A DNA stretch of 64,000 nucleotides, from NCBI GenBank assembly GCA_905221605.1, contig CAJNDS010000456.1, positions 35,001 to 99,000 of the forward strand, given 5' to 3'. Under the pieces are notes generated by a model. It searched no databases. It worked only from the letters and a program-made list of their open reading frames with translations, and was not told the origin of the DNA. The position numbers and the translations under genes were made by a program. How positions within the stretch are numbered: position 1 is the stretch's first letter; each line of letters opens with the position of its first letter. Shown one piece after another: positions 20,150-64,000 of this stretch. The stretch comes from Symbiodinium natans (taxonomy: Eukaryota > Sar > Dinophyceae > Suessiales > Symbiodiniaceae).

Positions 20150-21556
20150 AGACCCGGCGAGGCGCCCGCCGCACCCGCCGCGTGCCACAGCCCCCGAGGT
20201 TCTGCATGGGGAGGCCTTGCGCACTTCCAAGCGCGGCTCGGCCGCAGGCCTCTCGGGCGCAACCGTGGAGCTCTACAAGCTCCTCCTGGACGATGCGGCG
20301 GCGCTCGAAGCCTTTACTTACGCAGTGAACGTCGCCGCCCGCGCGCAAGCCCCGCAAGTAGCGCTGGACGCCATGGCCCTTTTTCGCGGCTGACTGCCCT
20401 CCGGAAACCCAACAGAGGTGTCCGCGGCATCGCCACAGGGGACGTGTTTCGGCGCCTCGTCTCCCGCGCACTCGCACGCGCGTTCAGTGGGGAGCTTGAT
20501 GCAGCCACCCGGCCGTTTCAGTTCGCGCTGCAGACTCGTGCCGGTACCGACAGCTTGGCGGCGATGCTTCGTGCGGGCTGTTGAACTCGACCCGCAGGCC
20601 ACGGTCGTTTCTGTGGATGGGCGCAGCGCTTACGACACCATCAGCCGCGCGACCATACTTGCCAAACTGCGCGACACGGTCCCGGCGCTCGTGCCGCCCG
20701 TGCCATGTACGCGCGTACTTTCACGTACCTGTGGTGGGACGACGAGGGGCGTGTGCACGAGATCGCGCAAGCTGAAGGCGTCGAGCAGGGCGACCCCTTG
20801 GCGCCAGGGTTTTACGCCCTTGGCCAGCACGACTCGCTGGTGGCGGCGAGTGCTTCCCTGCAGCCCACGGAGCGCCTCGCCGCTTTCCTGGACGACCTCT
20901 ACGTCGTCACTGGGCCGGACTGCGCAGCGCCGCTCCTGCGTGTTGTTACCGGCGAGGTCGAGCGAGGCGCGGGCGCTGACCTCCTTGTTGCCCAGGACGA
21001 CATCCCCCCTGCAGATATACTGCCGTACGCTCGCGCTCACGACGATGCGGTCTGGGCCGTCGTTCAAGGTCTGCTGGGCGACCAAGGGCCCAGCGAAGGG
21101 GACGCCTGGGCGGCTGCTCGCAGCGTTGCTTTTTTGCCGCCGAGCCTGGGAGGTCTTAGCCTCTTGGCAGCTGAGCGGGTAGCGCCGGCAGCATACTGGG
21201 CGGCGTGGGCAGATGCGCTCGCGGTGTTGCGCCAACGTTACCCCGACGCAGCGGACAGGCTCGTGCGCGAGCTCGAGGGCGCACCGTCGGCACCTTGCCT
21301 GCACGCAGCTGTGGAGGCGGCGCGCCAGCTTACTGCGGAGGGCTGGGAGAGCAGACCAAACTGGGAATCTTGCGCCCGAGGCGCTGACGTCCCAGCGGCT
21401 GAGGGTGAACTCGGCTCGGAAGCCCTGGTTGGCAGCGACATGCCGTTCTCGCACTTCACGCTCGCTTCCGAGAACGCACGTTGCTTCCGGCCTTGGCTCC
21501 TGCCGCTCGAACCCTCCTCCACTCTCAATCCGGTCCGCATGCCTGTATGTAGCTAG
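20150..21556 (+). pseudogene. Decayed reverse transcriptase domain (non-LTR type)
   Basis: RT motifs appear in order: LTALRKPNRGVRGIATGDVF (entry region, about 20395-20455), ATVVSVDGRSAYDTISRA (motif A with its Asp, about 20600-20655), EGVEQGDPLAPGFYALG (motif B, about 20780-20830) and AFLDDLYVV (motif C with the DD pair, about 20880-20910). The frame changes near 20390, 20575 and 20703, so the gene is broken. Between about 20960 and 21010 the usual region after motif C seems shortened, passing quickly into the LPPSLGGLSLLAAERVAPAA thumb-like segment. The long minus-strand open frame over the same bases is a shadow caused by high GC. Codons are far more GC-rich than the rest of the window. 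No flanking LTRs are seen. Confidence 0.82.
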
Positions 21557-33050: not shown

Positions 33051-33146
33051 ATCGAGTTAAGCGAGTCCTTAGCCACACGTCGAAGAGGCTGAGGTTAATT
33101 GGAGTGATCGTTTGAAAGTGCAGTAGATTCTGTCGATGCCCCGCAG

Positions 33147-36100
33147 AGGTTGCAAGTCCGGAAAGCCATCCTGGTATCCGCTCTCTGAGGGTGACGGGTA
33201 TCAGGCCCATGGTTTGCGAATGTCATTCCAATGCTGTGCAGACACAGCGTTTCGCAATGCACGCTGAGGCGGGAGGTGCATCACAGGGTGCCCCACATGC
33301 AGCAACCCTGCAGCCGGTGCAGCCGAAACTTGGCGAACCCAACAGCGCAGCACCCGCGGCTTCTGTTGCTGCACCAAATCTGCAAAACATTGGCCTCGAT
33401 TGCTGGTATGAGTGCAAACAAAAATCCGGGTTTTGTGACTACTGTGGACTCGGCAACGCTTGCTGCCGGAATGGCTATCAGGCAGAATCCCCGAAGGAAT
33501 GCCAAGGCAACTTGAAATTCACAACCTGGCACCATGAATGCATCGTGCCTGATCGCTCAGCTGCACCAGCTGCAGCTGCTGCGCCACCACCAACAGCTGC
33601 TGTGCCACCACCGGCTGCTGCTTCTGCTGGCACCAGCCCCGCTGCCCCACATGCAGCAACCCTGCAGCCGGTGCAGCCGAAACTTGGCGAACCCAACAGC
33701 GCAGCACCTGCCGCTGCTGCTGCCACTCCAAGTTTGCAGCACATTGGCCTCGATTGCTGGTATGAGTGCAATCAAAGATCGGGGTTCTGTGACTACTGTG
33801 GACAAGGCAATGCTTGCTGCCGGAATGGCAAACAGGCAGAATCCCCGACGGAATGCCAAGGCAACTTGCAATTCACAACCTGGCACCATGAATGCGTCGT
33901 CCCTGATCGCTCAGCTGCTGCTGGTGCTACCCCCACTGCCCCTCACGCAGCAACCCTGCAACCGAACCAACTAGGCAACCCAAACGGGGCGTCACCAGCC
34001 GCTTCTGTGCCACCAGCGGCAGCTGGTGAAAGCCACGACTCGGCTATGGCCGCCGCAGGGGCTGCAGCCCAAGCAGCCGCCACGGCCGCAGGCAAGTCGG
34101 GCGAGGCCTTGATTGCATCGATCACAGAGGCCGTTTCGAAAGCTGCAGCTTCCGCAGGGATGAGTGCCGACCAGCAGAAGCAAGAAGCGGTAAAAGCAGC
34201 CCGCACGTATGCCGCAGCTGCAGGCCTTTCAGTTGCGGATGCAGAAAGTGCGGCACTTCATGCATTGGACGCCGCCCAGAACAAAGAATTTCAGACTGCC
34301 GGTGTTGCAATGCCACCAGCACCAACTATAAGTCCCGGAGTCCAGGCCGCAATGCCAACGATCAAGCCCGTTGTCCAAGCAGCTGGTGCCGCTGCTGCTG
34401 CCACTCCAAGTTTGCAGCACATTGGCCTCGATTGCTGGTATGAGTGCAATCAAAGATCGGGGTTCTGTGACTACTGTGGACAAGGCAATGCTTGCTGCCG
34501 GAATGGCAAACAGGCAGAATCCCCGACGGAATGCCAAGGCAACTTGCAATTCACAACCTGGCACCATGAATGCGTCGTGCCTGACCATTCGAAAAACGCT
34601 TACGAGCAGATTGCACTTGCAGCCGAAGCCGCAGCAAAGTCAGCTGCCGCAAGCGGTGCCACAGCTGCAGAGCAAGCACAACAAGCATCTGCAGCCCTTG
34701 GAGAGTATGCCAAGAAAATTGGGGTGCCACCGGAAGTCGCTGCCAAAATTGCAGGTGCTGGAGTTCAGGCCCCCGACGCCAGTCACTCACCTGCAGCGCA
34801 TGCAGACATGACTGGCGAAGTTAAAGCTGCAACTGCGGCCGTGGAGGCAGCAGCTTCGTCGAATGGTACCCCGCAACAGCAGCTAGCACAGGTTGCCGAA
34901 GCAGCCGCAAAGAAGGCTGCAGAATCTGGCCAAGGCTTTCAACAACAGGCAGAGGCTGCAGCAATCGCAGCAGGCACTGTTGCTGCAAAGATCGGAGTGC
35001 CGGCCGCAGATGCTGTCCACATGGCGGCAGAAGGGGCTGCCAGCGCGGCGCTGGCAGCTGGTGAAAGCCACGACTCGGCTATGGTAGCCGCAGGGGCTGC
35101 AGCCCAAGCAGCCGCCACGGCCGCAGGCAAGTCGGGCGAGGCCTTAATTGCATCGATCACAGAGGCCGTTTCGAAAGCTGCAGCTTCCGCAGGGATGAGT
35201 GCCGACCAGCAGAAGCAAGAAGCGGTAAAAGCAGCCCGCACGTATGCCGCAGCTGCAGGCCTTTCAGTTGCGGATGCAGAAAGTGCGGCCCTTCATGCAT
35301 TGGACGCCGCCCAGAACAAAGAATTTCAGACTGCCGGTGTTACGATGCCACCAGCACCAACTATAATTCCCGGAGTCCAGGCCGCAGATGCTGTCCACAT
35401 GGCGGCAGAAAGGGCTGCCAGCGCGGCGCTGGCAGCTGGTGAAAGCCACGACTCGGCTATGGTAGCCGCAGGGGCTGCAGCCCAAGCAGCCGCCACGGCC
35501 GCAGGCAAGTCGGGCGAGGCCTTGATTGCATCGATCACAGAGGCCGTTTCGAAAGCTGCAGCTTCCGCAGGGATGAGTGCCGACCAGCAGAAGCAAGAAG
35601 CGGTAAAAGCAGCCCGCACGTATGCCGCAGCTGCAGGCCTTTCAGTTGCGGATGCAGAAAGTGCGGCACTTCATGCATTGGACGCCGCCCAGAACAAAGA
35701 ATTTCAGACTGCCGGTGTTGCAATGCCACCAGCACCAACTATAAGTCCCGGAGTCCAGGCCGCAATGCCAACGATCAAGCCCGTTGTCCAAGCAGCTGGT
35801 GCCGCTGCTGCTGCCACTCCAAGTTTGCAACACATTGGCCTCGATTGCTGGTATGAGTGCAATCAAAGATCGGGGTTCTGTGACTACTGTGGACAAGGCA
35901 ATGCTTGCTGCCGGAATGGCAAACAGGCAGAATCCCCGACGGAATGCCAAGGCAACTTGCAATTCACAACCTGGCACCATGAATGCGTCGTGCCTGATCG
36001 CTCAGCTGCACAAGCTGCAGCAGCGGCTGCACCACCACCAGCTGCTGCAATGCCGACTGCTCTGCCTGTAAATTCAAAGGTGGGTGCAGCGACATCGATC

Positions 36101-36637
36101 GTTCCCGCCACGGGAAAGAATGAAACCCTGCCCACTCCAGAAAAGCTTGCCTTGCAAGCGGCCATGAAAGCTGCGGCCACATCTCCAGAAGCTGCACAAA
36201 GCGCAGCTGAAAATGCCGCCTTGAATGCAGGCAGCTCACCAGAGCAAGCTGCAGAGATTGCACGGGCTGCTGCTTATGCTGCGACGGGGGGTGCTGTCGT
36301 TGCACATGCAAGTGCTAGCATTGCACCGCTCGAAGAAAAGACAGGATCCCAAGGCAAAAGCAGTACCGGCAACACTGGAAAATCTGGCAACGAGCCCAGG
36401 CCTGCAGAGGTCGATGCAGCGGAAGCCGGAGCTGAAGCTGCCCGAGGCGCAGCTGCCGAAGGAAAGACGCCTGCAGAGCAGGCAAAGGCAGCTGCCGAAG
36501 CAGCAGGGAAAGCTGCTATGAATGGAGGCATGTCGCTTGTCGGAGCGGAGGAGGCAGCAAGGAGCGCCGCAGTGCCGCTCAGACAAAAACAACATAAAAT
36601 AACGCAAAGGTTACGCAAAGGGCGCAAGATGTCGTGA
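33147..36637 (+). CDS. Long exon: four Cys-rich modules alternating with Ala-rich helices
   Basis: The reading frame is open from 33116. A CCCGCAG acceptor before 33147 is the likeliest exon start; the first in-frame ATG is at 33209. Four near-identical modules of about 55 residues (near 33387, 33735, 34415 and 35827) read LDCWYECNQRSGFCDYCGQG, NACCRNGKQAESPTECQGN and LQFTTWHHECVVPD, with ten Cys each. They alternate with Ala-rich helical stretches containing AGESHDSAMAAAGAAAQAAA and GMSADQQKQEAVKAARTYAA, present three times. Copies at about 34020-34600 and 35433-36000 are almost identical in DNA, so the expansion is recent. I know of similar CW..C...G.C..CG.GNACC modules in dinoflagellate proteins, function unknown. 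The basic tail after about 36580 (RQKQHKITQRLRKGRK) may be intron read-through. Confidence 0.75.
34020..36000 (+). repeat. Intragenic near-identical duplications
   Basis: Three copies of an Ala-rich block start at about 34023, 35056 and 35436 (each beginning with GCTGGTGAAAGCCACGACTC). The first and third continue into a complete Cys-rich module, so about 575 bp are shared almost base for base. The second copy breaks off after about 330 bp. Differences are a handful of single bases, showing recent unequal exchange or gene conversion. Confidence 0.85.
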
Positions 36638-42575: not shown

Positions 42576-44432
42576 ATGACAATGAGCATGCATCGGCAAA
42601 GGCCGAAAAGCTTCAGCATGGTGGAAGGTGCTGGTCGTGTTTGCTGCAAGTATCCAATCCGTTTGGTTCTATGCAAATGGATTTCAAACTATTATGTGGT
42701 CATGTTGTTTTATCTAAACTACTGGCTGTTCACAAATGAGCTCTCTTCACAACAGCACCCCTTGCAGTCTCTTGCATGCACCTGGCAAAGTCAATTTGCA
42801 ACTTGGATCAAGGCTGCCACTGCCTTACATTTTACAGGCACAACCGCACATGGCCCAACCTGCATGGAGGATGAAGAAGCTGAGTCGGAAACCAGCAATC
42901 TGGTCTGGGTAAATAGTTTACTCAGGGCTCTTTGGCCAAATGCGACTGCCGCGCTGGTGACCTTCGCATACAATGACCTTACACCCCGGCTGCAGCAAGG
43001 TCTCCCGCTTCCCTTCAAAAGTGCACACTTTGCAAGGTTCTCACTCGGAGATGGTGTTCCTAGTTTCGGTCCAATTGATGTGATTCGGCGATCTGGCAGT
43101 CACATCTGCATCGAGTTGGAGATGTGTTACTCCAGCGCAGTGGACATTCTATTGGCTGCCGGGTCGCATGGTGTGTCACTGGGGGTGAAGCAGATTCGGT
43201 TCCACGGCAGGCTGTGCATCGAAATGAAGCCAATTATTGACACTTGGCCAATTGTTGGCTCATTTCTCTTTGCGTTTGCAGGCCAACCACAGCTGGAATT
43301 GGAGTTTTCAGGCATTGCAGATGTGCCTTTGCCCGGCTTGCCTGGCTTGGCAAAGAAGGTTCAAGGAATCGTGGATGGGTCGTTGGCCCATGTCGTGCTT
43401 CCGAATTGCAAGTCTGTGCGCCTCACCAGTGATGAGAGGTTCCTGAGTTTGGCCGCTTGCTCGAGCAAGGAACCGATTGGCGTTCTTGAATTGCAAGTCG
43501 CGCGTGGCATCAACTTAGCAGGTGCAAATTGGCGTGCTGCTGGTATGGGGCCGAACGTGCGAAGTTTCACCTCAAACCCATACTGTATTGTGCAAGTGGG
43601 CAACGTCAAGGCACGCACAAGCAGTGTGCGGGCAACAACAAATCCTGATTGGAATGATGATCCCTTCTTCTTTCTTGTGTATCACAACGATCAAGAGGTA
43701 CTGATTGACGTCATGGATGACGACGGAGGTTTTTTGCAGCGCAACTTTGTGGGACTTTTAGGGCGCTTGCGGATCACAGTTCGCGAGCTGCTTTCACGCA
43801 GGTCCCGGCCAAGACGGAATGCAACTGCTTGCCCTAGCTCTTGCCGCTTTGCCCTGGATACTTCGCAGGTTAAGCGGGGGTTGCTCCACGTAGATGACCC
43901 TGTCAACACTGGAGTGCCCTCAGAGCTTGATGTGATTGTTGGATGGCTTGAAATGTCTCCCATGTCTCCCAAAGTCAACATTGAACGAATTGGAGCTTCT
44001 GAGAGACGACCTGAAGGCATCATCTTGTTGGAGCTTCATCACGGAACGGGTTTTCCAGAGGAAAGTCTTACGGAAGCGAGTACCAGATTGGTTTGGGCAT
44101 GCTCTTTGAGCGAGGATGGAGAACGTGAACGTGTCGGCTCCAGTTGCCGGAGCTCTGCAGGAAGGCGTTCTGAAGAGCCCAATTTTCACTTGCCCATACC
44201 GCAATGCCTGTATTCGGCCATAGATCAGCTCACAGCTCGAGGTGTCGAACCTGGAGAGGTCGCGGACATTGTTCAGATTGATCGTGTGCAAGTTGAGCAG
44301 TACCTGTCGGCGAAGTCGCGCTTTTTACAAGATGTCTCCGCTCGGCAGCTGGAGACTGGTGAAGACCAGTGTGTTGAGTTGGCATGGCATGAAACCTTGG
44401 CGTTACTGGCTTTGGGCCAAGAGTGTCATTGA
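42576..44432 (+). CDS. SMP plus C2 domain membrane-contact protein (extended-synaptotagmin/tricalbin-like)
   Basis: A 618-codon frame. ATG 42576 is the first codon after an in-frame TAG at 42570, within TTTAGGCAATG, which also looks like a splice or trans-splice acceptor. A hydrophobic stretch near residues 30-50 (YYVVMLFYLNYWLF) would anchor the protein in the ER. Residues about 105-285 form an SMP lipid-transfer domain, entered by NLVWVNSLLRALWPNATAAL (compare the known WLN..L..LWP entry motif) and ending GSLAHVVLPNCKSVRL. A C2 domain follows at about 300-410 (GVLELQVARGINLAGANW, NPYCIVQVG, TTNPDWNDDPFFF, DVMDDDGG). Some Ca2+-ligand Asp are present but loop 1 lacks the usual pair. About 200 further residues include a possible degenerate second C2. 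Such proteins move lipids at ER-plasma membrane contacts. Intronless here, which is unusual for the family in animals. Confidence 0.82.
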   Translation: MTMSMHRQRPKSFSMVEGAGRVCCKYPIRLVLCKWISNYYVVMLFYLNYWLFTNELSSQQHPLQSLACTWQSQFATWIKAATALHFTGTTAHGPTCMEDEEAESETSNLVWVNSLLRALWPNATAALVTFAYNDLTPRLQQGLPLPFKSAHFARFSLGDGVPSFGPIDVIRRSGSHICIELEMCYSSAVDILLAAGSHGVSLGVKQIRFHGRLCIEMKPIIDTWPIVGSFLFAFAGQPQLELEFSGIADVPLPGLPGLAKKVQGIVDGSLAHVVLPNCKSVRLTSDERFLSLAACSSKEPIGVLELQVARGINLAGANWRAAGMGPNVRSFTSNPYCIVQVGNVKARTSSVRATTNPDWNDDPFFFLVYHNDQEVLIDVMDDDGGFLQRNFVGLLGRLRITVRELLSRRSRPRRNATACPSSCRFALDTSQVKRGLLHVDDPVNTGVPSELDVIVGWLEMSPMSPKVNIERIGASERRPEGIILLELHHGTGFPEESLTEASTRLVWACSLSEDGERERVGSSCRSSAGRRSEEPNFHLPIPQCLYSAIDQLTARGVEPGEVADIVQIDRVQVEQYLSAKSRFLQDVSARQLETGEDQCVELAWHETLALLALGQECH

Positions 44433-47420
44433 GTGTCAGCAGTTGTGCCTTTGATGCTGCCTCTTATATCCTCCTTTCCTTTCCTGTGAGGTTCACAGGC
44501 CGAAGACGGCTCATGTCCATCTCCGCCTTGTTGGTGAAATGGACTATGTCCTTGGAAGCTTGGCCTGCATTGTTCTCTGCGGGTGGATGGCTCGGTGCTT
44601 TCTGTGTTTTCCGTCTTTTCACCTCCGCTGGTTAAAGTTTTTGGTTAAATGCTGGCCTGCCACTTGGTCACTTGATGTCAGCAGTGCTGAGGATAAGGCA
44701 AGGGCTCCGAAAGTGTCATGATATCCTAGGGATGTGAGTTCCCTATAGTTTCCTGCCGAAGATTCGCAGACCTCTGTCTGAAAGTCTGAAATGTCTGATG
44801 CGCACAAAGCGGTCCATGCTGGCATGTTTGGTGTTTGACAAACCTATGGATGGCGCGTATTCAACCTGAATCTGACCCAAGTAATATCAAGTAATCAGAC
44901 TTCAGACTCGGGTGCCGAAACCGTTCGAAGCAAGATGACTCGACGCTCGCGTCTAAGGTGATGCTGGGCCAATCCGAGCTGCTCAGCTGTTTGGCATCCA
45001 GACTCCTTTCTTGTATGGAAAACCTGTTTGAAATCTCAGCGAAGTGTGGATGATTTGTTGTTCGCTTTCGTGTGCCAACGTCTGTTTTGCTTCGCTGGCG
45101 ATTTGCTCTGGCATTGCAGCGTCGCCTTTGTTGCCCGCTTTCGTGATCTTTGGTTGCAGCTCTCGATCTCTCCAGTGGAGAGCTATTATTTGAAACGAAC
45201 ACAAAGTCGAGGTGGATACACAAGCATTCACAGTATATAGATGTGGGCATGCATGCAGGCGCTAAGCCCTTAAAACCAAGATGCATCTGAGACAAAGGCT
45301 TACCCAGGTGCAGAGGCGGCTGACATGGGCCAACGCTGGCCAGTTATCAGAAAATTGCGCGGCGATGGGTGTAAGTTTTGCGAGAGTAACTTATCTAAGA
45401 AGACCGTTTCGCGACGAAGGAAAGATGAACTCTCATGACTGGGGATACAGTTTGTAGCTTCTGAGTTCTGGGCGCTCATCTTGAGACCTGCCACACAGTC
45501 CGGGCCAAGGGGCAAGAGGCGGCATCATGCAGCCACCATGGGTTATTCTTGCTCTAGTGCTTATCTTGCATTCCAGGTCGAAGACGTGCTGACCACAGGC
45601 ACCGCCAGCAGCACAGTATACGGTATACGTTGTCATTTTCACTTTTACTTGCTTGTAGGGACGGCCGTGACGAGAGAGGGCGCTCCAAGCAAGCAGTGGC
45701 AGGTTCTGGGCACTTGCGGACGGTTTGCAAGCTTTCTGCGGCATCTGGTAGCCTTGCCAGTGGCCGTGAGCATGCAGGTCACTGGCTTGGTGTGATCGGG
45801 GGTAGGAGACACCTCTGTTGGATACTCTATTGTCCTCAGTTGCTTCTGCACATTCCTTCACATTTCTGCACCATGTTGTGTGTGTGGAAGCGCTTAAGGC
45901 AAGCTTTCAGCCTGGATGTTTCCAACCTGTACCGCACCGACCACATCCAGGAGTCGCTTCAAATCCGCCTCTTTGCCGAAGATACAGGATTTGTAAAAAG
46001 ACGCTGAAACGAGAGGATTTGCTTATGCTCATGTTTGCTCCATATTCAAATTATATATTTGCTTCATGGTTGTTGATTGGGATGGGAGTGATCCTGCCTT
46101 GTCAAGCATGCCTCGCTGCATTCGCCGCAACAGCAAGTCTTGGGTGCTGTTGTTGGGCCTCGAGCTGCCGCATTGGCACTTTCGGGTCAAATCGAGCCAA
46201 CATCTCTTAAAGCCGGACGTTGATTACTCCACCAGTGGCCAACTATGTAAGAGTATGCAACCGTAAATGCCCGAAGCACCGACCACGTGACGACGTGCAC
46301 CCACATGATCCGCAGCCGAGCCACCAAAGTGTCACCTGTCACCTTTAAAAACAATGCGGTTTCACTACTTGGGAGACTTGGGCTGTGCATGCATCCGACC
46401 CAGAGGCCAGATTTGTTCAAGAGTATGGGAAATGAGGGTTTCCTTTAAACTCAGGCAATTTCGAATCTGGGAAAATTCGGGACTCTTTTGGCAGCCTCCG
46501 AGGCTCAGCAAAGTCTCATTTTTCTTGGAGTGTGACTTCAACAAGAGGAAGGAGAGCCCAGGAGAGCCCAGGAGAGCCCAGGAGAGCCATAGTTTTTAAA
46601 GGCCGAAGTCGGGCCGTAGTGATTGATGGTCAAGATTCTTGCCATCACGACTCGCAGTCGCCGCCAACTGCATTCAAGGGTATCCAAGGGTTGGCAGAAG
46701 TACCTGCGTGCACAGTAGGTGAGCAGCTTGAAAAATCTGTCTGTGCTTTGGTTGAGGTGCGAATGGAAGTCTCGGTACGCTACCAGGCCCTCACGTGGCG
46801 TGCTGAATCTGGCTAACCCGAAACTTTTGGCGAACTCCTGCAGCTGCGCATTCTCGCGTTGGGCCTAACGTGCGTCTCCATGGTATACACAAAGCTCGGA
46901 GAACAACATCCTCCCGAAGAACAAATTCTAAGGAAAAACACAGCCTGACCTTGCAATCCTCGCGACGACGGTTTCTCCTTGATGCGCTTTGTCTTCATAG
47001 CCAATGAGCGAGATGCCTGCATGTTGTGGGCTGGAGATTGGGAACGTGACATCCATGGAACGCAATAATGGTTGGAATGGCTGCGGAACTCTTCGGGACA
47101 TTGGCACGCACCGGATCGTTCGCTGCATTACAAGATAAAAGCGTGATCAGCATAAGCCCGCCTTGAGTGAACGGTTTCGTGCCCGGCATCCTTTGCACAA
47201 AGCCGCTGCCGAAGGCTCCAGCTTGTCAACTCTACGCAGTAGACATACTCGTTGCATGCCCTAAGCAAATGCAAAGAGGTTCGAACAACTTGGTACACGT
47301 ACGTTTGTCCTTCTTTCGCTGGCCTGGAGCCGCAGCCTCGATTTGGGGACTTGCCATGGCACCACAGCAGGCAGTGGGCCGAGCAGGTCGTTCGCTTGCA
47401 CTGGTGTGGGTCTTCCCCAC
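44433..47420. other. No supportable gene; may hold upstream exons of the hydroxylase
   Basis: No exon was recognised on either strand. The prolyl hydroxylase exon beginning at 47423 needs an upstream start, so its signal-anchor exon probably lies in this interval or beyond it. Confidence 0.35.
46551..46590. repeat. Four tandem 10-bp units (GGAGAGCCCA)
   Basis: Three perfect copies of GGAGAGCCCA are followed by GGAGAGCCAT. It is one of several four-copy decamer arrays in the window. Confidence 0.9.
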
Positions 47421-50625: not shown

Positions 50626-50959
50626 ACTGCGATTTGCACACGCTCCTACCCAAGCAACAGAGTGTAATTATCAGCTGCACAGCCGTCAGTCTTTCCATGT
50701 CACTTCGAAATGCACTGCGCAAACTACCACGTTGGCCTCGCATCAGAAACACACCTTGGCCAGGCCGATCGGAAGTTGGCTGTGAAGTACCATCCAGTGC
50801 CTGGTCTGCAATGTCTTCTCGCCATGGGAGAAGATCGGTAGCTGTCGGGTGTCGTTTAGAAGCACCTCTCGAGTTGACCACAAAGTCTATCCCAAACTGT
50901 ATGCCCATTTTGGACCAAGGTCCAAGGTTTTCAAGGTGCCAACAAAACCCTGTGGCATC

Positions 50960-50976: not shown

Positions 50977-53900
50977 ATGAGTGCAGCCCAAAGGGTCTTG
51001 CTCCTAGCGATGCTGGTCGCCTCCTGTCGTGGCCGACAAGGGGACACCTGCCAGGAACCAGACAGGCAAGCTCTCATACAGTTGCGGAATGCGCGGGAGA
51101 AGGGTTTGCTGGACGTGTCGGTGACCTTCCAACAGCTGCCTGTTCTCCAGCTCTTCTTTCCCTTCGGGAATCCGATGCCGGCAGGCAACTTTTCCGGCTC
51201 TTCCGGGCCCAATGTCACGAATGTCACGGAACACTTCGAGTGCGTGGTGCCCATTCCGCCTGGGGCCTCTTCCGACAAATGGGTGCCGTGCCTAAACATC
51301 ACAGAGCGGCAGCAGCTTCAGCAGGACGTCATCGCAGCCTCCTCGAACGCCAGCGAACCAAGCCTGGCTGAGTATCTTGCGACGGGTTCGTGGGATCCGG
51401 CGGGAAAGTGGGCAATTCCTATGGATTACTGGAACGACATGCGATGCAACTGTCCAAACTGCGCGGATGAGGAAGAGCTGTACACGGCTGTGGCATACGC
51501 GGTGCAGGGTAGCGGCCTCACCCTGGCGGACAACTTTACCGACTATGTCTTGAACTGCGAGACCTGCCCGGGGTGTCCTGACCAGAACCAGTGTGGTGCC
51601 GTGGTCGACTGCGACCCGGACGCCTTGCGGCTTGTTCCGTCTTGTGCACAGAAGCTCCAAGAGGATGGCTGGAACATCGATCATCTCTACGACTGCGGGG
51701 ATGGGTTCAAGATCCCGAAGCTCTATGTCAATGACAGCGAGTATTGCGACTGTCCAGACTGCAGCGACGAGGACAAATTCACTTGCAGCACTTGCAACGC
51801 GGAGTGTCCAACCGAGTGTGGCTATTGGGCTTTGTGCGGCAGCAACTCCTCGTTTACGCTGAACCCGATTTGCCATGGTGCCAATTTCAATTGGGATGCC
51901 CGCGCCGGCTACAAGGCTTGCAACAATGGCTGGACAATCCCGGCTGACTATTGGGATGACGAGTTCTACTGCGACTGCCCAGACTGCGAGGACGAAAGTA
52001 CTATCACCTGCCAGGAATGTGGCGGGTGCCCCAACGCCTCCGCCGCCTGCGGCGAATTTGTGGAGTGCTTCACTTCAGAGAGCATCCTGCCGACCCTGAA
52101 CCCATATTGCATCTTGCCTGCTTTGGGCGGATGGTCGCCAGGAAGCATCATCTCTTGCAACGCCTCAGATCCTGACGCCTGGAACATTTCGTCAAAATAC
52201 ATCAATGACGGGTACTGCGACTGCGGCAATTGCGAGGATGAGGATGAGTGGACCTGCGCGAACTGCTCGGTGGGATGCCCCAAACAATGCGGCGACAGCG
52301 TCCAATGCGTTGCGAACGAGGCGAACTTCAAGGCATGTGGTAGCATTCCAGACTTGGTGTACAGTTATGGATCTGGCGGCTATGGCGGCTATGGCCCTGG
52401 CTCTGGCTATGGTGGCTATAGCCCTGGCTCTGGCTTTGGCTATGGTGGCTATAGCCCTGGCTCTGGCTATGGCGGCTATAGCCCTGGCTCTGGCTATGGC
52501 GGCTATAGCCCTGGCGGGCATGACGATGCCAATACTGGTTTCGACGATGGCGACGATTCTATCCTGGACGATGCCAATACTGGTTTCGATGACGGGGATG
52601 ACGCTGGGGCCCAGAATCTCCTGAGCAACAAAGCCCAGACGAGGCGGTCCAAATTCTTCGTGTGCGAGAACGGTTGGACCATTCCGGTCGACTGGTACGA
52701 CGACAAGGACTTGGGGGACTTGGAATAAATTATAATTTTCTATGGGTCCTAATCCCTATATACCCAGAAGAACCCATAGAATTTTTTATTTTTACAGGGC
52801 CCCCAAATTCACCCTAGAGGAGTTCTGCGATTGTCGCAATTGCGAAGATGAGCCCAACATCACACTTGAGAGCTGTGGTATCCAGCCGCTGGCTTTCTGT
52901 GGAGACTACTTCTATTGTGGCGGAGAGGCGTCCGAGGTGCAGGGGGCTTGCGACTATGAGATATGGGAGCTCGGGCTGAACCCCGTGGTTTGCAGCAATG
53001 GCTGGACCAAGCCAGAGGATGCTTGGAATAACAACTTCTGCGATTGCCCGGACTGCGAGGATGAGAACGAGACGGGTTGGAACTGCGACAATTGCTACTG
53101 TCCTCAGGAGCAGTGCCGTGACAACGGCGCTTGTTTCGCTGGGATTTCCAGCCTCTTTGGCTTCCAGGGTACTTTTAATGCCCCGCCACCGTCGGCAAGC
53201 ACTACAACTACGACGTCGTCGACTCCGTCGCCGGGAACGACCTCGTCGACAAGCACTACAGACACGACGTCGTCGACTACATCCCCGGGAACGACGTCGT
53301 CGACCAGCGCTACATCCACGACGTCGTCGACTCCATCGCCGGGAACGACCTCGTCGACAAGCGCTACAGACACGACGTCGTCGACTACATCCCCGGGAAC
53401 GACGTCGTCGACCAGCACTACATCCACGACGTCGTCGACTCCATCGCCGGGAACGACCTCGTCGACAAGCGCTACAGACACGACGTCGTCGACTACATCC
53501 CCGGGAACGACGTCGTCGACCAGCACTACATCCACGACGTCGTCGACACGCACTGCGGCCACGACGGCTGGCATCGACACCACGACGTCGGCTGCCACAG
53601 ATGTTTTGTCTCAAGACCTTCCGCAAGATGTTGCTGACGGTTCCACGATCATCCCTGTAGCTGATGTCACCCTGTTCAACGTCGGGGACATCATCCAGAT
53701 CTCTGATGCGAATGGGGCTGAGATCAAGATCGTGGTTAATATTACCTCCGAGGGCACATCGGGACCACAGCTCCTTGAGCAACATGTTGTCACCAGAGCC
53801 GCCCTGCACATGGCAGATACGGCTGTACCGGGAAATCTCATTGTGGACTCGCCACTTGAGAGCAACTACCTGGTGAACCGGTCCGCAAGTGTGACAATTG

Positions 53901-56900
53901 TCTTGACATCGTCGACTACATCGCCGGGAACGACGTCGTCGACCAGCGTGCCATCGCCGGACGAAGGCAAGGGCCATGGTTCCACCTACGCCTACCACAA
54001 AGGAGCCTTCCCTTGGCACTACTGGCACGCTTCCAAAGGCAGGGCGCGCAAGCCGCACGGAAACAGGAGATGGGGGTGGCACGGGAAGCAGCACTTCTCA
54101 TACTCGCTGACGCAAGAGGGATTGGAGAGGAAGACCGTCAACCAGGAGCGCAGGGTCCTCCGATCCATGCTAGCCAGCGAGGGATGTTTTTTCCTGAGCT
54201 GCCTCTCGGATATCTTCAATAAGGCCGCCGAAACCGTGTCGGACTTCGTCGCGAAAACCGCCGACACCGTAGCCTCCAAAGTGACGACGCTTGCTGAGAA
54301 GGCGGCAGCCTGGGCTGAGGGTGCAGTGAACGATGCTGTCAAGTGGGGAACCCAGGCCGTCGCCGACCTCGTGGATTGGTCCGAGGAAGCAGCCAGACAG
54401 GCAACTACATTTTGGGAAGTTTCGAACGTGGTGCTCGAGGAAGCGCTGGATCACTTTGCCCAAGTCGGAGCCGCGTTTGCGATGGAGGCTGCCGAAGCCG
54501 CCGGAGAATTCTTCATGAGCGCCTTCAACACTGGCAAAGAAGTCATCGGCACATTCTTGGAGAAGCACCTCGCCAACATCCTGGATGAGGCCAATGTCCA
54601 ACCGAGACCCACTTTCTGTGGTGGCGTTGTGTTTCCCGACGAAGCTCTTTCCGTGGTCAGCAACCCCAACAACGACTGTTGGAAAAAAGTGACCGACATG
54701 ACCGAGGAGATCGCCGACTTCTTCGTCGACGACGTTGGGCGGCTCCTGGACGCAATTGCCACGCGCGTGTCAAACATGCTGGAAGATGAGGACTTATGGA
54801 AGGCATTGCTTGGCAAGCTTGGGCTTACCCTGATCGAAAGCCTTGCCTCACTGGTACTCCCCATATCTCGGTCAGTCAATGTCTACAAAGATATCTTGGC
54901 GGTCATGGTGACCTATTTGAACACGCACCTTCTGCCCTTGTACGCAGACCTTTCAGCCTTCTTCGCCGATGTCGGAAGGTTCCTGGCCGCGTTGTCCGAA
55001 CGAACGTCGAGCCTTATCAATTCTGTCTTCAACGAAGCTGGCCCCTTCAACTTCAATGGCTTCGAAGGGAAAACGTGGTACATTTCGCTGTGCACGGAAA
55101 CGTTCTTTCTCGGATTCACCCTCGGCTCCTGCATCTACTACCCCTTCAAGTACGGCGCCACTGACAACGACTACTTTGTCATCGAAGTAGGCTTCGGGGT
55201 CGAGAAGGACCTTGGCACTCGTTCACTTAGCACAGAACTCGGAGTCGAAGGCGGCATCCAGATCGGGCCCATCATGACCAACGACAAGAGTGACTTGGAG
55301 GGGCAGTCATTCTCAGTCGGCTTGGACATCGACTTCCAGACGAGGAACCCCAAGACCCCGAATATCAACGTCGGCCCATCCATGACTTATGGCATCAGCC
55401 CGGTAAAGCTGTTGACTCTCGACTTTTTCGCCGGCATCAACTTCGCGCTCGACTTGTTGGACACGCCGGATGGGGGAGTGTCCTTCAGCTTCTGGAGCAC
55501 GAAGCAGTACGCTTGGAAGCTGCCTGGGCTGCGGGAAATCCTGGGGCCCGTCTTGGGCAATCTGTTCGAGACTGGCCCCACGGCCAAAAAGGAGTACAAC
55601 TACAACGCTGGGGCAGGTGGCCTTGTACAATTGGCGGACGGGCTGCTGTCCCGTGGCAACCGAACTTCGAAGAAGCGGACATCAATGGACCAGTCGCTCT
55701 TCATAGGCGAAGGCAAGGGTGGCGCAGGTGGCGCAATCATCGACGGGGTCACAAGCACTGTCAGCTCCGTGGTCAACGTGGGAGAGGTCGGCTTGATACA
55801 GGCCGTGGACAAGGTTGCACCAGACTTCACGCAACCTACTCCTCCCCTGGTTGCAACTCCCCCGTCGCCCGGGCCGCCCCCACCTCCTCCCATTCCGGAG
55901 CCGGCGCAGGTGGACGACGTGTGGTTGAGGGGTTTCCTGATTGCCACTGGCAGCCCCTTGGAGGGCCCGATGGAGTTGCCAGCAAAGCGGCGGTGGGTCT
56001 ACGTTGCAGGTGCGGACTGTGCAGTGGGCACGGCCGTGACCACCGAAGCAGAATGCAATGAGGCCTCCTTGTACCTGGAAGCCGCGCCGCACCGCGGCAA
56101 TGACCTTGACGTCGAAGTAGGAGCTTGGAAAGACATACCTTTGGGCTGCTCCATTAAGGGGAGTGCCGACACTCCGCGCAACTACCAGAAAGTCCACTGG
56201 AACACCGACGCCCGGACGAACAGCGCCCGTGCAACAACCGACGAGTTCCGTGCCATCTGCCGCAGGCCCTTCTACGTGGCGCAGCAGAGTCAGAGGGACT
56301 GCATGGGTGGCGCCAGGATTCTCCGCAAAGACACGTGTGTCGACGCGTACATGCAGCTGCAGTCGAGCTTTAAGAAGATCCTCCCGCCTCGGTCGATGCC
56401 GCTGCCGCAGATGAACCCAAGCGACAAGCGCATTCCGCCGGCCTGCTCTGTCGAGTGGGACGTGACCGACAAGAGGCAGCTCTTCTTTGCAAGCGACTTC
56501 TCGAAGACCTTCTCACCAACTGCCGGTCAGGACTACGCTCGGCCCGTGTGCAAGAAGCAGCAGTATTGGCTCGAAAGGCCTGGAGCCACCTCCTGCCCAA
56601 GAGGCTCGCAGATCACAAGCAAGGAGGAGTGCGAGAATGCCTACCAGAACCTGAAGGATCGCCTTCCGCGTCTCCGTGCCCGGGACCGAACCATACAAGG
56701 CTACTGGAATGCCTTGCTCGCGGGCTGCGCGGTCCAATACAAGGGAGACATGACGCCTCACTTCAACACCAACCCGGCACCTACGAATATGCTGCGGGAT
56801 GGGCTCGGCTTCTACGTCCCTATGTGCAAACAGCCCAGCTGGTGGCTGGGAGAAAATGGGGGCCGCTGTCCTATGGGAACAGAAATCACCACGTTCCTGG

Positions 56901-57884
56901 AGTGCAAGATGGCACACAGGGCGTTGCGCCACGAGTACCCGACGAACCCGAAAAAGAGCTTCGTGGTGACGGATGTCACGCACATTCCACGAGGCTGCTC
57001 TGTGCCTAAGGATCACAAAGAACCACATGGACCAGACGCCCACTTCAATGTTGCCAAGGGCGACAACGTGCATAAGGGCTGGTACCCGATCTGCAAGCCA
57101 GCTCGATACGTCTTGGGTCGCCGAACAGTCCGACGCTGCCCTGAAGGCGCTGAGATCCGTACGGCCGAAGAGTGCCTTCGTGCCCACAACACTCTCAAGA
57201 AGGAGATCAAAAAGGCCTATGGAGGCTGGCGCTCCAAGGGACTGATCAGCCTATACGCTCCGGGCAACGAGATTCCGCCCTTCTGCAGCTCTGGTGGCGG
57301 CCCGGACACGAGCCCCTACTTCAACATCAACGCCATCTCCTTGGGCTCTGGTGCAGACAGCGGGAAGTACAAGGTGGTCTGCAAGGTGGCGGTCACGGGT
57401 CAAGAGGCCCCGGCGACCCCTATCATCGAGCTCGGGCCGATTCGGGCCACGTACCACATGCTCAACGCCGACGGCTACACCTGCGAGCCCAAGAGTCTGA
57501 CCTTCGATCCAAGCTTTCGGCAGCCGGACACTCTCAAGCTGGCCCTCGTTTGCTGCAACGGAGCCCGGGCAATTGCCATCAAAAGCGGCGCCACTTGCAG
57601 TCCTGTAGGCCTGACGTGGGAGCTTGCCAGGCAAGCGTGCGAGGACCGTGGCGAACGCCTGTGCAGCAGTAACGAGGTCACTTGGGGGGGGATTTGGAAT
57701 AGTCTTTAAATGTCTATGGGTTCTAGTCCTAAAACAAATTTCAGTTTACATTTTTATGGGGCCCCCGAATCCACCCTAGGTCAGTTTGGATGCAGACTCT
57801 GCAAGAGCCTGGATCGACGGCCAATGCTCATCGAGCACAGGAGTCGCCCCGAGCTTCTGGACAATTGAGGACTGCTACTTGTAG
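50977..57884 (+). CDS. Giant secreted mosaic protein, three exons, 2230 residues
   Basis: Exons 50977-52707, 52820-57676 and 57780-57884. The ATG follows an in-frame TAG by two codons. MSAAQRVLLLAMLVASCRG is a clear signal peptide. Then come six acidic Cys modules such as YWDDEFYCDCPDCEDE and YINDGYCDCGNCEDEDEWTC, resembling LDL-receptor class A Ca2+ cages; the fifth is split by intron 1. Between modules 4 and 5 lie a GYGGYSPGSGYGGYSPGSG repeat and an acidic DDANTGFDDGDD repeat. A Thr/Ser mucin-like stretch (about residues 700-830) follows, then an ADGSTIIPVADVTLFNVGD strand module. Next are a long amphipathic helical region (about 1040-1170), an unrecognised beta-rich region (about 1310-1510), a Pro hinge and five Cys repeats of about 95 residues. 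The end is ACEDRGERLCSSNEV joined to SLDADSARAWIDGQC. Probably a cell-surface or extracellular matrix protein; family unknown. Joining the exons is supported by restored domains, not by transcripts. Confidence 0.82.
52370..52600 (+). repeat. Coding Gly/Tyr/Ser repeat and acidic repeat
   Basis: GGCTATAGCCCTGGCTCTGG-type 30-bp units encode GYGGYSPGSG about five times. They are followed by two copies of a 42-bp unit encoding DDANTGFDDGDDS. Both lie in frame inside exon 1 of the secreted protein gene. Confidence 0.9.
52708..52819 (+). other. Intron 1 (112 nt, GA-AG)
   Basis: The join AAG|GACTTGG...CCTAGAG|GAG TTC restores WYDDK-EFCDCRNCEDE, the same spacing as the uninterrupted modules (YWDDEFYCDCPDCEDE). 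Retention would add DLGDLE and a stop. The 5' border is GA, a donor type reported for Symbiodiniaceae. Both borders fall inside the duplicated AGGA. Confidence 0.75.
52710..52817 (+). mobile_element. Introner copy 1 (108 bp, TIRs, AGGA duplication)
   Basis: The element runs CTTGGGGGACTTGGAAT to GGGCCCCCAAATTCACCC plus TAG. The ends are imperfect inverted repeats: CTTGGGGG-ACTTGG against CTAGGGTGAATTTGG. It is flanked by AGGA at 52706-52709 and 52818-52821. Inside, TTCTATGGGT (52738-52747) and ACCCATAGAA (52772-52781) form a perfect 10-bp stem. The last 29 bases match copy 2 at 25 positions, and CTATGGGTYCTARTCC is shared near the middle. It encodes nothing. Confidence 0.8.
53190..53560 (+). 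repeat. Coding Thr/Ser mucin-like minisatellite
   Basis: Units of about 60 bp encode TTSSTPSPGTTSSTSATD and TTSSTTSPGTTSSTSTTS in alternation, about six times, nearly identical in DNA. A lone further unit (SSTTSPGTTSSTS) occurs near 53910-53945. It is likely an O-glycosylated linker. The repeat also opens long minus-strand frames, which are shadows. Confidence 0.9.
55960..57400 (+). repeat. Five tandem ~95-residue Cys repeats (coding)
   Basis: Each unit has the pattern Y-x-G-x(4)-C-P-x-G-x(2)-I-x-T-x-E-E-C-x(2)-A, then IPxGCSV, an HFNTN-like block and PICK. Examples: CPRGSQITSKEECENAYQNL, RCPMGTEITTFLECKMAHRA, RCPEGAEIRTAEECLRAHNT. Four conserved Cys per unit suggest disulphide-bonded extracellular domains. 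Protein-level divergence is high, so the array is old, unlike the repeats at 34-36 kb. Confidence 0.75.
57677..57779 (+). other. Intron 2 (103 nt, GT-AG)
   Basis: The join GAG|GTCACTTGG...CACCCTAG|GTC AGT converts the premature end TWGGIWNSL into VSLDADSARAWIDGQCSSST, continuing GVAPSFWTIEDCYL and TAG. This adds two Cys to the C-terminal GERLCSS-type domain. The phase is 0 on both sides. Confidence 0.75.
57681..57779 (+). mobile_element. Introner copy 2 (99 bp, TIRs, GTCA duplication)
   Basis: The element starts CTTGGGGGGGGATTTGGAAT and ends GGGGCCCCCGAATCCACCC plus TAG. The ends are imperfect inverted repeats (CTAGGGTGGATTCGG on the complementary strand). GTCA flanks it at 57677-57680 and 57780-57783. 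It has the same orientation relative to the gene as copy 1. The internal stem of copy 1 is not kept: the right half reads CAAATTTCAGTTTACATTTT. Confidence 0.8.
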
Positions 57885-62238: not shown

Positions 62239-64000
62239 CTTGGGTTCAAGGTGTTCCAAAGTGCCGCGGTCCCGACCCGCGCCAGGGAGTGGTGGCTGAG
62301 AAACAAGTGGATTTACAAGAACCCCTGCTTCGAACAACCCTGCCATGGCTCACACAAACGCGGAGATTTTACACGCAAGCAAACAAAGAAAGGTCCTTGA
62401 ACTGATAGCTACTTCTAGGGACTGTGGGCTACAGCACCTACAGTCTGAAACGTTGGTTGTGCTGTACGGTTGAAGCATGCTCAAGGCTTACTGACCGAAG
62501 CGAACCCCCCGATGAGGCTCCGGTTGTCGACCATTTACCATCACAGTTGTCGACCCTTTGCCATCACGGCATTGCCAGGCCAATCGGGTCCTATGGGTCC
62601 TAGTTCTTGTTTACGCTGACCTCGACAAGCTTACTCATTGCTTATACTCGCAGGATTGGAGCACGTGCGCTCCATCGCCAAGCTCAACACGTTAATCGTG
62701 AGCCGGACTGCATCATTAAGGCAGTATATGCGATAAGTAAACAGTCGACAAACATCGACAAACGATACGCATGCTACAATGGAAGTCCAGGTTTGGATTC
62801 CAAGGCTCGCTGACTTTCCAGCAATGCGGTGTGCAGATTTTCGTAGAGAGCACGGACCTTCGCTGGATCGTGTTGTTGGATGCGTGGGTCGGCGAGGCGC
62901 TGTGGAAAAAGGGGGTGTGCCTTCCACCTTCCTCAGGAGCCTGTAGTCTCGGCCAGCCCGTGCAAGCAGCGGGGGGCACAGCCGGGATCGTGGTGTTTCG
63001 ACCTCAGCCACGGGATGAGGTTAACGTAGTGCAACGTAGCGTGAGCGCCTAGTTTCGTGCCATGCGATGCCTGGTGGACCCGGCCTCACTGCTGCAGATC
63101 ACATACTCTGGGCGCAGAGGACAGGACGTTGAAGCCGAGCGAAGGCACACAAGACATATCAGTCACAGAATGATAGAGTCACAGCTGCCAGGATTCAGAA
63201 GGAGGAAATAAATGCAAAGTCACGTCCAGATGGATTCTCAGTTCGAGCTGCGGTGAGCGTGCGCCACTTAAAGGGAGGTGCCTGAAAGCCTGAAAGCGTC
63301 CAGACGTTCATGCATGGTTAAACTGCAGCGGTCTGTAAGCAGGGGCCCTGAAGGTTTTCAGTCATGGGTCCCCGTGCAACCCAACGGACCCAACGCCAAC
63401 TCACACCGCCCAGATTCTATCATGTCTTCAGCTCTAGCATTGGGCTGCAAGTTGGGCCCTGCAAGTCCAAGCCCACGTACTGACACATTCCCTTCTCATT
63501 CCCTATCCCACCAACCTTCGTGAAAACGACCTCGGCTTAAGAATGCCGGTTCTTGTTTGTTGTTTTTTTGTTCATCTGCTGATGTGGAGATTCACCACAG
63601 GATGTCCCGACAGATTGCTTCACTCACTGAGTCGCTGCTGAAAGTGCAATCAGCTTGGGCGAGATGTGTCCAAGGAACTGAGAGACTGAAGTGAGGTTGA
63701 GATGGTTGAGAAACCAGGAACTGCGTGAAGAGAGCTCAACAGCGGAAGCCACGAAGGTGGCATAGTGCGTTAGCATACGATTGTGTCGTAGCAGAGGCGA
63801 GGGCCATGGCTATGTTTCATCAAGAAAAGCACTTCCCATCACTTGCCCCTTGCCTCAACCCCCTTCCCCCCCCTCCAACACATGGACATGCATGCGCCTT
63901 CGCGGATACACCGGTGAAACCGCGAATGCGCGAACCGCAAACTTATGGACGCGAACACGCGAACATGCAAACACGTGTTTTTTTTGGATGCGTGGCTTCT

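What the first reader, a model, noticed from the sequence alone, without database searches (positions are those of the whole stretch)
52706..57783. Two copies of a ~100-bp introner are the only visible introns of a 6.9-kb gene
Seen directly: introns at 52708-52819 and 57677-57779 contain related elements with the same ends (CTTGGG...CCCTAG), imperfect ~15-bp terminal inverted repeats, a shared right end (25 of 29 bases) and separate 4-bp flanking duplications (AGGA, GTCA). Known: introners, some with DNA-transposon hallmarks, cause intron gain in several protists including dinoflagellates. Inference: both introns arose by recent insertion of one non-autonomous element, in the same orientation. 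The element's sequence may define an undescribed family.
Basis: partly seen in the sequence, partly recalled or inferred. Interest (0 to 1): 0.92.

Follow-up and report, generated by a model that had tools for sequence, protein, structure and literature searches.

The report
Old introner copies in algal gene
In a free-living alga related to coral symbionts, both introns of one long gene are worn copies of a short jumping DNA element that is scattered through the genome, which fits a known way in which genes acquire introns.

Summary
A 6.9-kb gene (50977-57884) reads open over 2,230 codons once two introns are removed (52708-52819, GA-AG; 57677-57779, GT-AG). Each intron is a ~100-bp element with an exact 4-bp target duplication (AGGA, GTCA). 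The host is Symbiodinium natans. A search of its 759-Mb genome with element 1 gave 32 matches, itself included (lower bound). Their consensus is a 109-bp palindromic MITE-like element, CTGGGG...CCCCAG, with terminal inverted repeats matching at 12 of 13 bases. One further copy firmly interrupts a gene (ankyrin repeats, GT-AG); two more may. Six others have duplications offering no usable donor, so the family is a general MITE that yields introns when the target supplies a splice site. The element brings its own AG acceptor, except in intron 1, where the duplication supplies both splice sites. The two copies are 82% and 75% like the consensus (ranks 19 and 26 of 28), so "recent" is not supported. 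The architecture matches the 4-bp-TSD/TIR introners published for S. microadriaticum: a new member of a known kind. Extra lead: a probable spliced-leader relict 58 bp upstream of the ATG suggests an intronless retrogene that gained both introns later. Splicing was not tested on RNA.

The parts
50905..50919 (+). Probable relict of the dinoflagellate spliced leader (CCATTTTGGACCAAG, 13 of 15)
   Evidence: Only place in the window within 2 mismatches of the 15-nt relict; 0.025% of 20,000 shuffles of the 150-nt upstream reach it
50977..52707 (+). Exon 1, 577 codons: signal peptide-like start (by eye) and four of the six CDCxxCxDE-type repeats
   Evidence: Open frame; repeats; 79% aa identity over residues 23-456 with S. 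natans paralogue P0019
52706..52709 (+). Left target-site duplication AGGA (its GA is the inferred 5' splice site)
52708..52819 (+). Intron 1, 112 bp, GA-AG, phase 0
   Evidence: Only register of the five tested with a G[T/C/A] donor and AG|G acceptor; restores DDKEFCDC as in paralogue P0019
52710..52817 (+). Element copy 1 (108 bp), 82.4% identical to the family consensus, near full-length palindrome
   Evidence: 98 bits to the family model, of which it is a member
52818..52821 (+). Right target-site duplication AGGA (its AG is the inferred 3' splice site)
52820..57676 (+). Exon 2, 1,619 codons
   Evidence: Open frame
57677..57680 (+). Left target-site duplication GTCA (its GT is the inferred 5' splice site)
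57677..57779 (+). Intron 2, 103 bp, GT-AG, phase 0
   Evidence: Only register of the five tested with a G[T/C/A] donor and AG|G acceptor
57681..57779 (+). Element copy 2 (99 bp), 75.3% identical to the family consensus
   Evidence: 66.9 bits to the family model, of which it is a member
57780..57783 (+). Right target-site duplication GTCA
57780..57884 (+). Exon 3, 34 codons and stop TAG 57882-57884
   Evidence: P0018 of Symbiodinium sp. CCMP2592 reads on past the same point, with weak similarity beyond it
52740..52755 (+). Shared core CTATGGGTCCTAATCC, copy 1
57714..57729 (+). Shared core CTATGGGTTCTAGTCC, copy 2

Best explanation
Both introns are introners: a ~109-bp non-autonomous DNA transposon (MITE-like, ends CTGGGG...CCCCAG, imperfect terminal inverted repeats, 4-bp target duplication) of Symbiodinium natans inserted twice, independently, into an otherwise uninterrupted coding sequence. 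The element's intact right end offers an AG acceptor. When the duplicated 4-bp target contains G followed by T, C or A in the right register, the left duplication becomes the 5' splice site, and splicing removes the element plus exactly one duplication, so the mRNA is unchanged. In intron 2 the acceptor is the element's own terminal TAG and the donor is in GTCA. In intron 1 the splice register lies two bases further right, so that both GA (donor) and AG (acceptor) come from the duplicated AGGA. Shown: element family, duplications, restored frame, gap-free match to a paralogue across site 1 (site 2 only weakly). Inferred: transposition by a transposase encoded elsewhere, and splicing itself.
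For: Two related elements with exact 4-bp duplications. 32 genomic matches to copy 1, itself included. Consensus with 12-of-13 terminal inverted repeats, reached by 0 of 63,891 window stretches. Of 31 rows tallied, 12 have CT...AG ends and 10 of these have exact 4-bp duplications, with boundaries picked by a script that favours them. Star-like tree that does not group the two window copies. Removal restores a 2,230-codon frame; S. natans paralogue P0019 reads DDKEYCDCRDCEDEPDITLESCG with no gap across site 1. At both sites exactly one register of five gives G[T/C/A]...AG|G, the pattern of two neighbouring E-Syt introns read from the annotated protein, GC-AG and GA-AG. A further copy, L012, interrupts a 387-codon frame (172 before, 214 after) with ankyrin repeats downstream, duplication GTGA, GT-AG.
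Against: No RNA reads were available. The genome search with element 1 did not return element 2, and the two introns alone would not be linked at genome scale by BLAST (no direct hit at word size 11; E 0.021 at word size 7 and a 100-Mb database). L044 (GACA, GA-AG) and L047 (GTTC, GT-AG) fit as introns, but their open frames (87/47 and 32/43 codons) are no evidence: 29% of random flank points have a frame of 30 codons on both sides, and L020 and L038, without a donor, have one too. The paralogue's DNA could not be read, so a true empty site at DNA level is not shown. At site 2 the corrected alignment to P0018 ends one residue past the junction.
Confidence: 0.88

Rival explanations
1. The elements are ordinary MITE insertions that broke the gene; they are not spliced and this is a young pseudogene.
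For: Six copies of the family have duplications without an allowed splice register, so the element is not solely an intron maker. Both introns have lengths of 1 mod 3 and carry in-frame stops.
Against: Copies 18-25% diverged from the consensus suggest a long time since insertion, yet 1,619 codons downstream of element 1 hold no stop. Both sites have exactly one dinoflagellate-type splice register.
Confidence: 0.06
2. Older, ordinary introns were already present and the elements inserted into or replaced them.
For: Secondary TE insertion into introns is a known confounder (PMC9860276, section 15).
Against: Element plus one duplication fills each intron from end to end; the duplications are themselves the exon edges; element 1 interrupts a protein repeat whose five other intragenic copies are uninterrupted.
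Confidence: 0.03
3. Non-spliceosomal removal: programmed DNA excision, or the hairpin-based non-canonical intron processing proposed for Amoebophrya.
For: Copy 1 is a near full-length palindrome (2 of 1,000 shuffles as good) and folds with z -2.79. Amoebophrya introners have direct and inverted repeats (PMC7789003, passages).
Against: Copy 2 has lost most of the inner palindrome (74 of 1,000 shuffles as good; fold z -1.27). Both sites have spliceosomal G[T/A]...AG|G edges.
Confidence: 0.025
4. The two introns arose by duplication of one intron-bearing gene segment inside the gene.
For: The gene contains internal protein repeats.
Against: Exon flanks are unrelated (8 of 20, 6 of 20), the duplications differ, similarity stops at the element ends, other copies exist elsewhere in the genome, and the tree does not group the two copies.
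Confidence: 0.005

Closest known systems
Symbiodinium microadriaticum introners (Gozashti et al. 2022, PMC9860276; sections 7 and 15 and passages read)
   [quoted passage not shown] same genus; the example cited spans 115 bp by its coordinates
   Different: Sequence could not be compared. Intron 1 here takes both splice sites from the duplication (a possibility that paper states for other families). The window's two introns would not meet that study's E<=1e-5 link to each other.
Dinoflagellate introner families of Roy et al. 2023 (12,253 introns in Polarella glacialis; paper not held, seen only as summarised in PMC11453091)
   Same: Introner-driven intron gain in dinoflagellates
Amoebophrya introner elements (PMC7789003, passages read)
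   Same: Direct repeats of 3-5 nt at the boundaries and inverted repeats within
   Different: There splice sites are highly variable and many non-canonical; here both junctions are dinoflagellate-type G[T/A]...AG|G
MITEs
   Same: ~109 bp, inverted-repeat ends, short target duplication, dispersed copies, star-like tree
   Different: Right end is a ready AG acceptor, so that some exonic insertions can become introns

Membership tests
Introner family (criteria of PMC9860276, section 15) | Similar introns linked at BLAST E<=1e-5 within one genome | tested here: inconclusive
   Copy 1 to the L012 copy: 3.0e-19 (G000:C1084). Copies 1 and 2 to each other fail at genome scale (E 0.021), and one search did not return copy 2. 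Copy 2 scores 66.9 bits to a family model that includes it.
Introner family (criteria of PMC9860276, section 15) | Similarity runs to within a few bases of both intron boundaries | tested here: met
   End-to-end global alignment of the elements
Introner family (criteria of PMC9860276, section 15) | At least four member introns | tested here: inconclusive
   Three inferred introns in firm coding context (two in the window, L012) and two candidates whose frames are no better than chance (L044, L047); none tested on RNA
Introner family (criteria of PMC9860276, section 15) | Similarity not due to paralogous genes or segments | tested here: met
   Unrelated exon flanks; L012 lies in an unrelated ankyrin gene
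Introner family (criteria of PMC9860276, section 15) | Spliced out of mRNA | not testable with these tools
   No RNA reads available
S. microadriaticum-type introner (Fig. 2B of PMC9860276) | 4-bp target duplication | tested here: met
   AGGA, GTCA here; GTGA, GATG, CTTT, TTGA, GTTC elsewhere
S. microadriaticum-type introner (Fig. 2B of PMC9860276) | Terminal inverted repeats | tested here: met
   Consensus 12 of 13; weak in the two window copies alone
S. microadriaticum-type introner (Fig. 2B of PMC9860276) | Element carries 3' splice site, duplication gives 5' splice site | tested here: inconclusive
   Intron 2 and L012 fit, L044 and L047 would; intron 1 takes both sites from the duplication
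S. microadriaticum-type introner (Fig. 2B of PMC9860276) | Same sequence family | not testable with these tools
   Published family sequences not held
MITE | Short element with terminal inverted repeats, fixed-length target duplication and many dispersed copies | tested here: met
MITE | Mobilised by an autonomous relative with the same ends | not tested
   No transposase search was made; genome search rarely answered
Dinoflagellate retrogene | Spliced-leader relict upstream of the coding region, typically 50-100 nt before the ATG (PMC6050394, passages) | tested here: met
   13 of 15, ending 58 nt before the ATG; shuffle fraction 0.00025. Against: the full 21-mer with up to 3 mismatches is absent, and the 13-mer scan of the window was at chance level (4 found, 2.4 expected)
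Dinoflagellate retrogene | Intron-bearing parental gene | not tested
   P0019 is a paralogue in the same species but its gene structure could not be read

The most novel reading that the evidence does not exclude
The gene is a spliced-leader-tagged retrogene that started with no introns and was re-intronised only by transposon insertions. If general, introns seen in dinoflagellate retrogenes, whose retention a review (PMC6050394, passages read) takes as a sign that unspliced RNA was copied back while allowing that some may be novel, would partly be newly gained introners, and the tagged retrogenes would form a natural set of genes with a known zero-intron start in which intron gain can be counted directly.
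Probability: 0.4. Interest if true: 0.65.

Novelty: new member of a known kind. Interest (0 to 1): 0.5.

Why it matters
It ties two introns of one gene to a genome-wide transposon family and suggests how the 4-bp target decides whether an insertion can be spliced and in which register. The two introns are diverged enough to be missed when introns are compared pairwise by BLAST, so published introner counts may be low (inference). If the retrogene reading holds, dinoflagellate retrogenes give intron gain a zero point.

Tried and rejected
A third copy at 62591-62606 (one mismatch to the core; nhmmer E 0.2): not matched by the family model at E 1e-3, no ends, no duplication; rejected. Viral-contig scans with the right end and with core plus right end: 0 hits each; GTDB genome scan: 0 hits; expected for a dinoflagellate. 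Rfam (gathering threshold) and tRNA scans of the window: nothing. Pfam on the two large exons: nothing at E 0.001. Full-length protein search returned only the window's own frame among 8,000 scored candidates, probably swamped by repeat words; the search restricted to the less repetitive part found P0018 and P0019. Pfam on the joined frames of L044, L047 and L038: no match at E 1; PDB with an L047 peptide: none.

One search shows that 14 of 32 rows, and 871 of 3,000 random flank points, have a frame of at least 30 codons on both sides in some frame, so that count, and 'non-coding' as a label for the remaining copies, are not supported; only L012 (172/214 codons, ankyrin repeats) stands as a further coding-site copy. 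Confidence was lowered from 0.90 to 0.88 for this.

Rows dropped: the alignment left out L045, L050, L013 (poor or partial) and L033 (same score and length as L032); its duplication tally left out L033. L015 (core match only), L018 and L024 (same printed sequence as L013) were not used; 2 of the 32 matches (C328, C1458) were not fetched. Element boundaries were chosen by scores that reward duplication matches; in all 31 rows of the tally 17 reach 4 of 4, several with poor ends.
Full report
What is there. The gene spans 50977-57884. Exon 1 is 50977-52707 (577 codons), exon 2 is 52820-57676 (1,619 codons) and exon 3 is 57780-57884 (34 codons and stop); joined, they read 2,230 codons without a stop. 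Intron 1 (52708-52819, 112 bp) and intron 2 (57677-57779, 103 bp) are both phase 0 and both 1 mod 3 in length. Their GC content is 38% and 43% against 58-59% in exons 1 and 2.

The two elements. Element 1 is 52710-52817, element 2 is 57681-57779. They align end to end with 73 of 96 aligned bases identical, share 25 of 29 bases at the right end, and carry exact 4-bp duplications AGGA and GTCA. Such flank identity occurs at 0.57% and 0.51% of window positions at the same spans. Their exon flanks are unrelated. Element 1 is a near full-length palindrome (2 of 1,000 shuffles as good); element 2 is not clearly so (74 of 1,000). Terminal inverted repeats are unconvincing in each copy alone.

Host. 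The neighbouring extended-synaptotagmin frame is 100% identical, over 83% of the query, to esyt2-a of Symbiodinium natans (P0002). That protein's contig is 136,417 bp long, as is contig C456 on which the window lies. The window is therefore S. natans, described as free-living (PMC8045281, passages). In that gene two introns that I read from the annotated protein are GC-AG (44409-44490) and GA-AG (44555-44957), both with AG|G, so a GA donor is not unusual here.

Splice register. Because each element sits between two copies of its target, five registers would give the same mRNA. At site 1 only the third gives G[T/C/A]...AG followed by G (AAG|GA...AG|G); at site 2 only the first does (GAG|GT...AG|G). 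Intron 2 thus uses the element's terminal TAG; intron 1 uses an AG from the duplication, two bases further on. Between these two members the splice register is not fixed relative to the element: the target sets it.

Does removal restore the protein? At site 1 the protein becomes WYDDKEFCDCRNCEDEPNITLESCG. The S. natans paralogue P0019 reads YYDDKEYCDCRDCEDEPDITLESCG without a gap, and the gene's five other copies of the CDCxxCxDE-type motif (four in exon 1, one in exon 2) are uninterrupted. At site 2 P0018 of Symbiodinium sp. CCMP2592 continues after GERLCNEDE as this protein does after GERLCSSNE, but the composition-corrected alignment ends one residue past the junction and the uncorrected one 15 residues past it, so support there is weak. 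The DNA of the paralogue could not be read because the genome search did not complete (12 attempts).

The family. The core pattern has 19 exact places in the 759-Mb genome, two of them the window's own, against 1 for the reversed control. Element 1 as a DNA query gave 32 matches at E <= 0.01, itself included, a lower bound; element 2 was not among them. The consensus of 28 aligned rows (26 others and the two window copies) is 109 bp, CTGGGGTGGATTTAGAATAAATTTTAAATTTCTATGGGTCCTAATCC...GGGCCCCCAAATCCCCCCCAG. Its first 13 bases match the reverse complement of its last 13 at 12 places; none of 63,891 window stretches does so. Of 31 rows tallied, 12 have CT...AG ends, and 10 of these have exact 4-bp duplications. 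The tree is star-like and poorly supported (2 of 25 inner branches starred), and elements 1 and 2 do not group together. These are the marks of a MITE.

Introns and non-introns. One further copy, L012, clearly interrupts a gene: removing it plus one GTGA gives a 387-codon frame, 172 codons before and 214 after, with ankyrin repeats downstream (E 5.8e-12) and a GT-AG register. L044 (GACA, GA-AG; the element has one extra base at its left end) and L047 (GTTC, GT-AG) may be introns too, but their frames of 134 and 75 codons are no evidence by themselves: 14 of 32 rows, and 871 of 3,000 random flank points, have a frame of 30 codons or more on both sides, and neither has a Pfam match. Copies with duplications CTTT, TTGA, AAAA, GGGA and GGCC have no allowed register on either strand, nor, by eye, has L016 (TTAT). 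These six cannot be introns of this kind, so the family is wider than its introns. L021 and L023 have a register but no long frame in that orientation. The likeliest reading is a general MITE family that inserts broadly, with introns as exonic insertions that happen to be spliceable and so survive.

Age. Identity to the consensus runs from 94% down to 69% among the 28 rows; element 1 has 82.4% (rank 19) and element 2 75.3% (rank 26). The word 'recent' in the finding is therefore not supported. Linked only to each other, these two introns would escape a genome-wide BLAST at E 1e-5 (E 0.021 at word size 7 in a 100-Mb database; no direct hit at word size 11).

Retrogene lead. The only 15-mer in the window within two mismatches of the spliced-leader relict lies at 50905-50919, 58 nt before the ATG; 0.025% of shuffles of the 150-nt upstream reach it. 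A 13-mer scan of the window was at chance level and the full 21-mer was absent, so the weight rests on position. A review places the more conserved relicts 50-100 nt before the start codon and takes retained introns in such genes as a sign of retroposition of unspliced RNA, while naming novel introns as a possibility (PMC6050394, passages). A gene this large with no introns other than introners fits retroposition first, introners later. A library search for 'introner' with 'retrogene' listed six papers, none on dinoflagellates by title (listing only).

Known and new. PMC9860276 (sections 7 and 15 and passages read) describes S. microadriaticum introners with 4-bp duplications, inverted repeats, a carried 3' splice site and a 5' splice site taken from the duplication. 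Intron 2 is of exactly that plan; intron 1 is a variant in which both sites come from the duplication, a possibility that paper states for other families. PMC11114475 (section 14 and passages) reports introner elements in 4% of genes of the Symbiodinium group in which it places S. natans, and PMC10666404 (passages) compares introner-bearing introns among taxa that include S. natans. Roy et al. 2023 is not held. I therefore file this as a new member of a known kind; whether the sequence family is already in the published files is untested.

Noticed in passing
50905-50919: Probable spliced-leader relict 58 nt upstream of the start codon of the two-intron gene, suggesting a retrogene
   Followed up: partly
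62591-62606: Isolated near-match to the element core without ends or duplication; not matched by the family model
   Followed up: yes
L013, L018, L024: Three loci on different contigs show the same printed stretch with a half-copy of the element next to CCCTAAA-type repeats, as if the whole segment had been duplicated
   Followed up: no
L016 (1969-2095) and L011: The run of C at the right end of the element is expanded in some copies (about 25 in L016), lengthening the tract before the terminal AG
   Followed up: no
53186-53570: Coding tandem repeat with 27-bp spacing (Thr/Ser/Pro-rich) in exon 2, much shorter in paralogue P0019
   Followed up: no
20394-21553: Reverse-transcriptase-like frames; one (20585-21553) has a weak RVT_1 match (E 0.22)
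   Followed up: no
33116-36637: Single open frame of 1,173 codons, Ala-rich, with repeated CWYECNQRSGFCDYCGQGNACCRNG modules and no Pfam match at E 0.001
   Followed up: no
window gene, protein P0001: The database lists the window's own frame on a contig of 89,942 bp while the assembly contig is 136,417 bp; two assemblies may be involved
   Followed up: no
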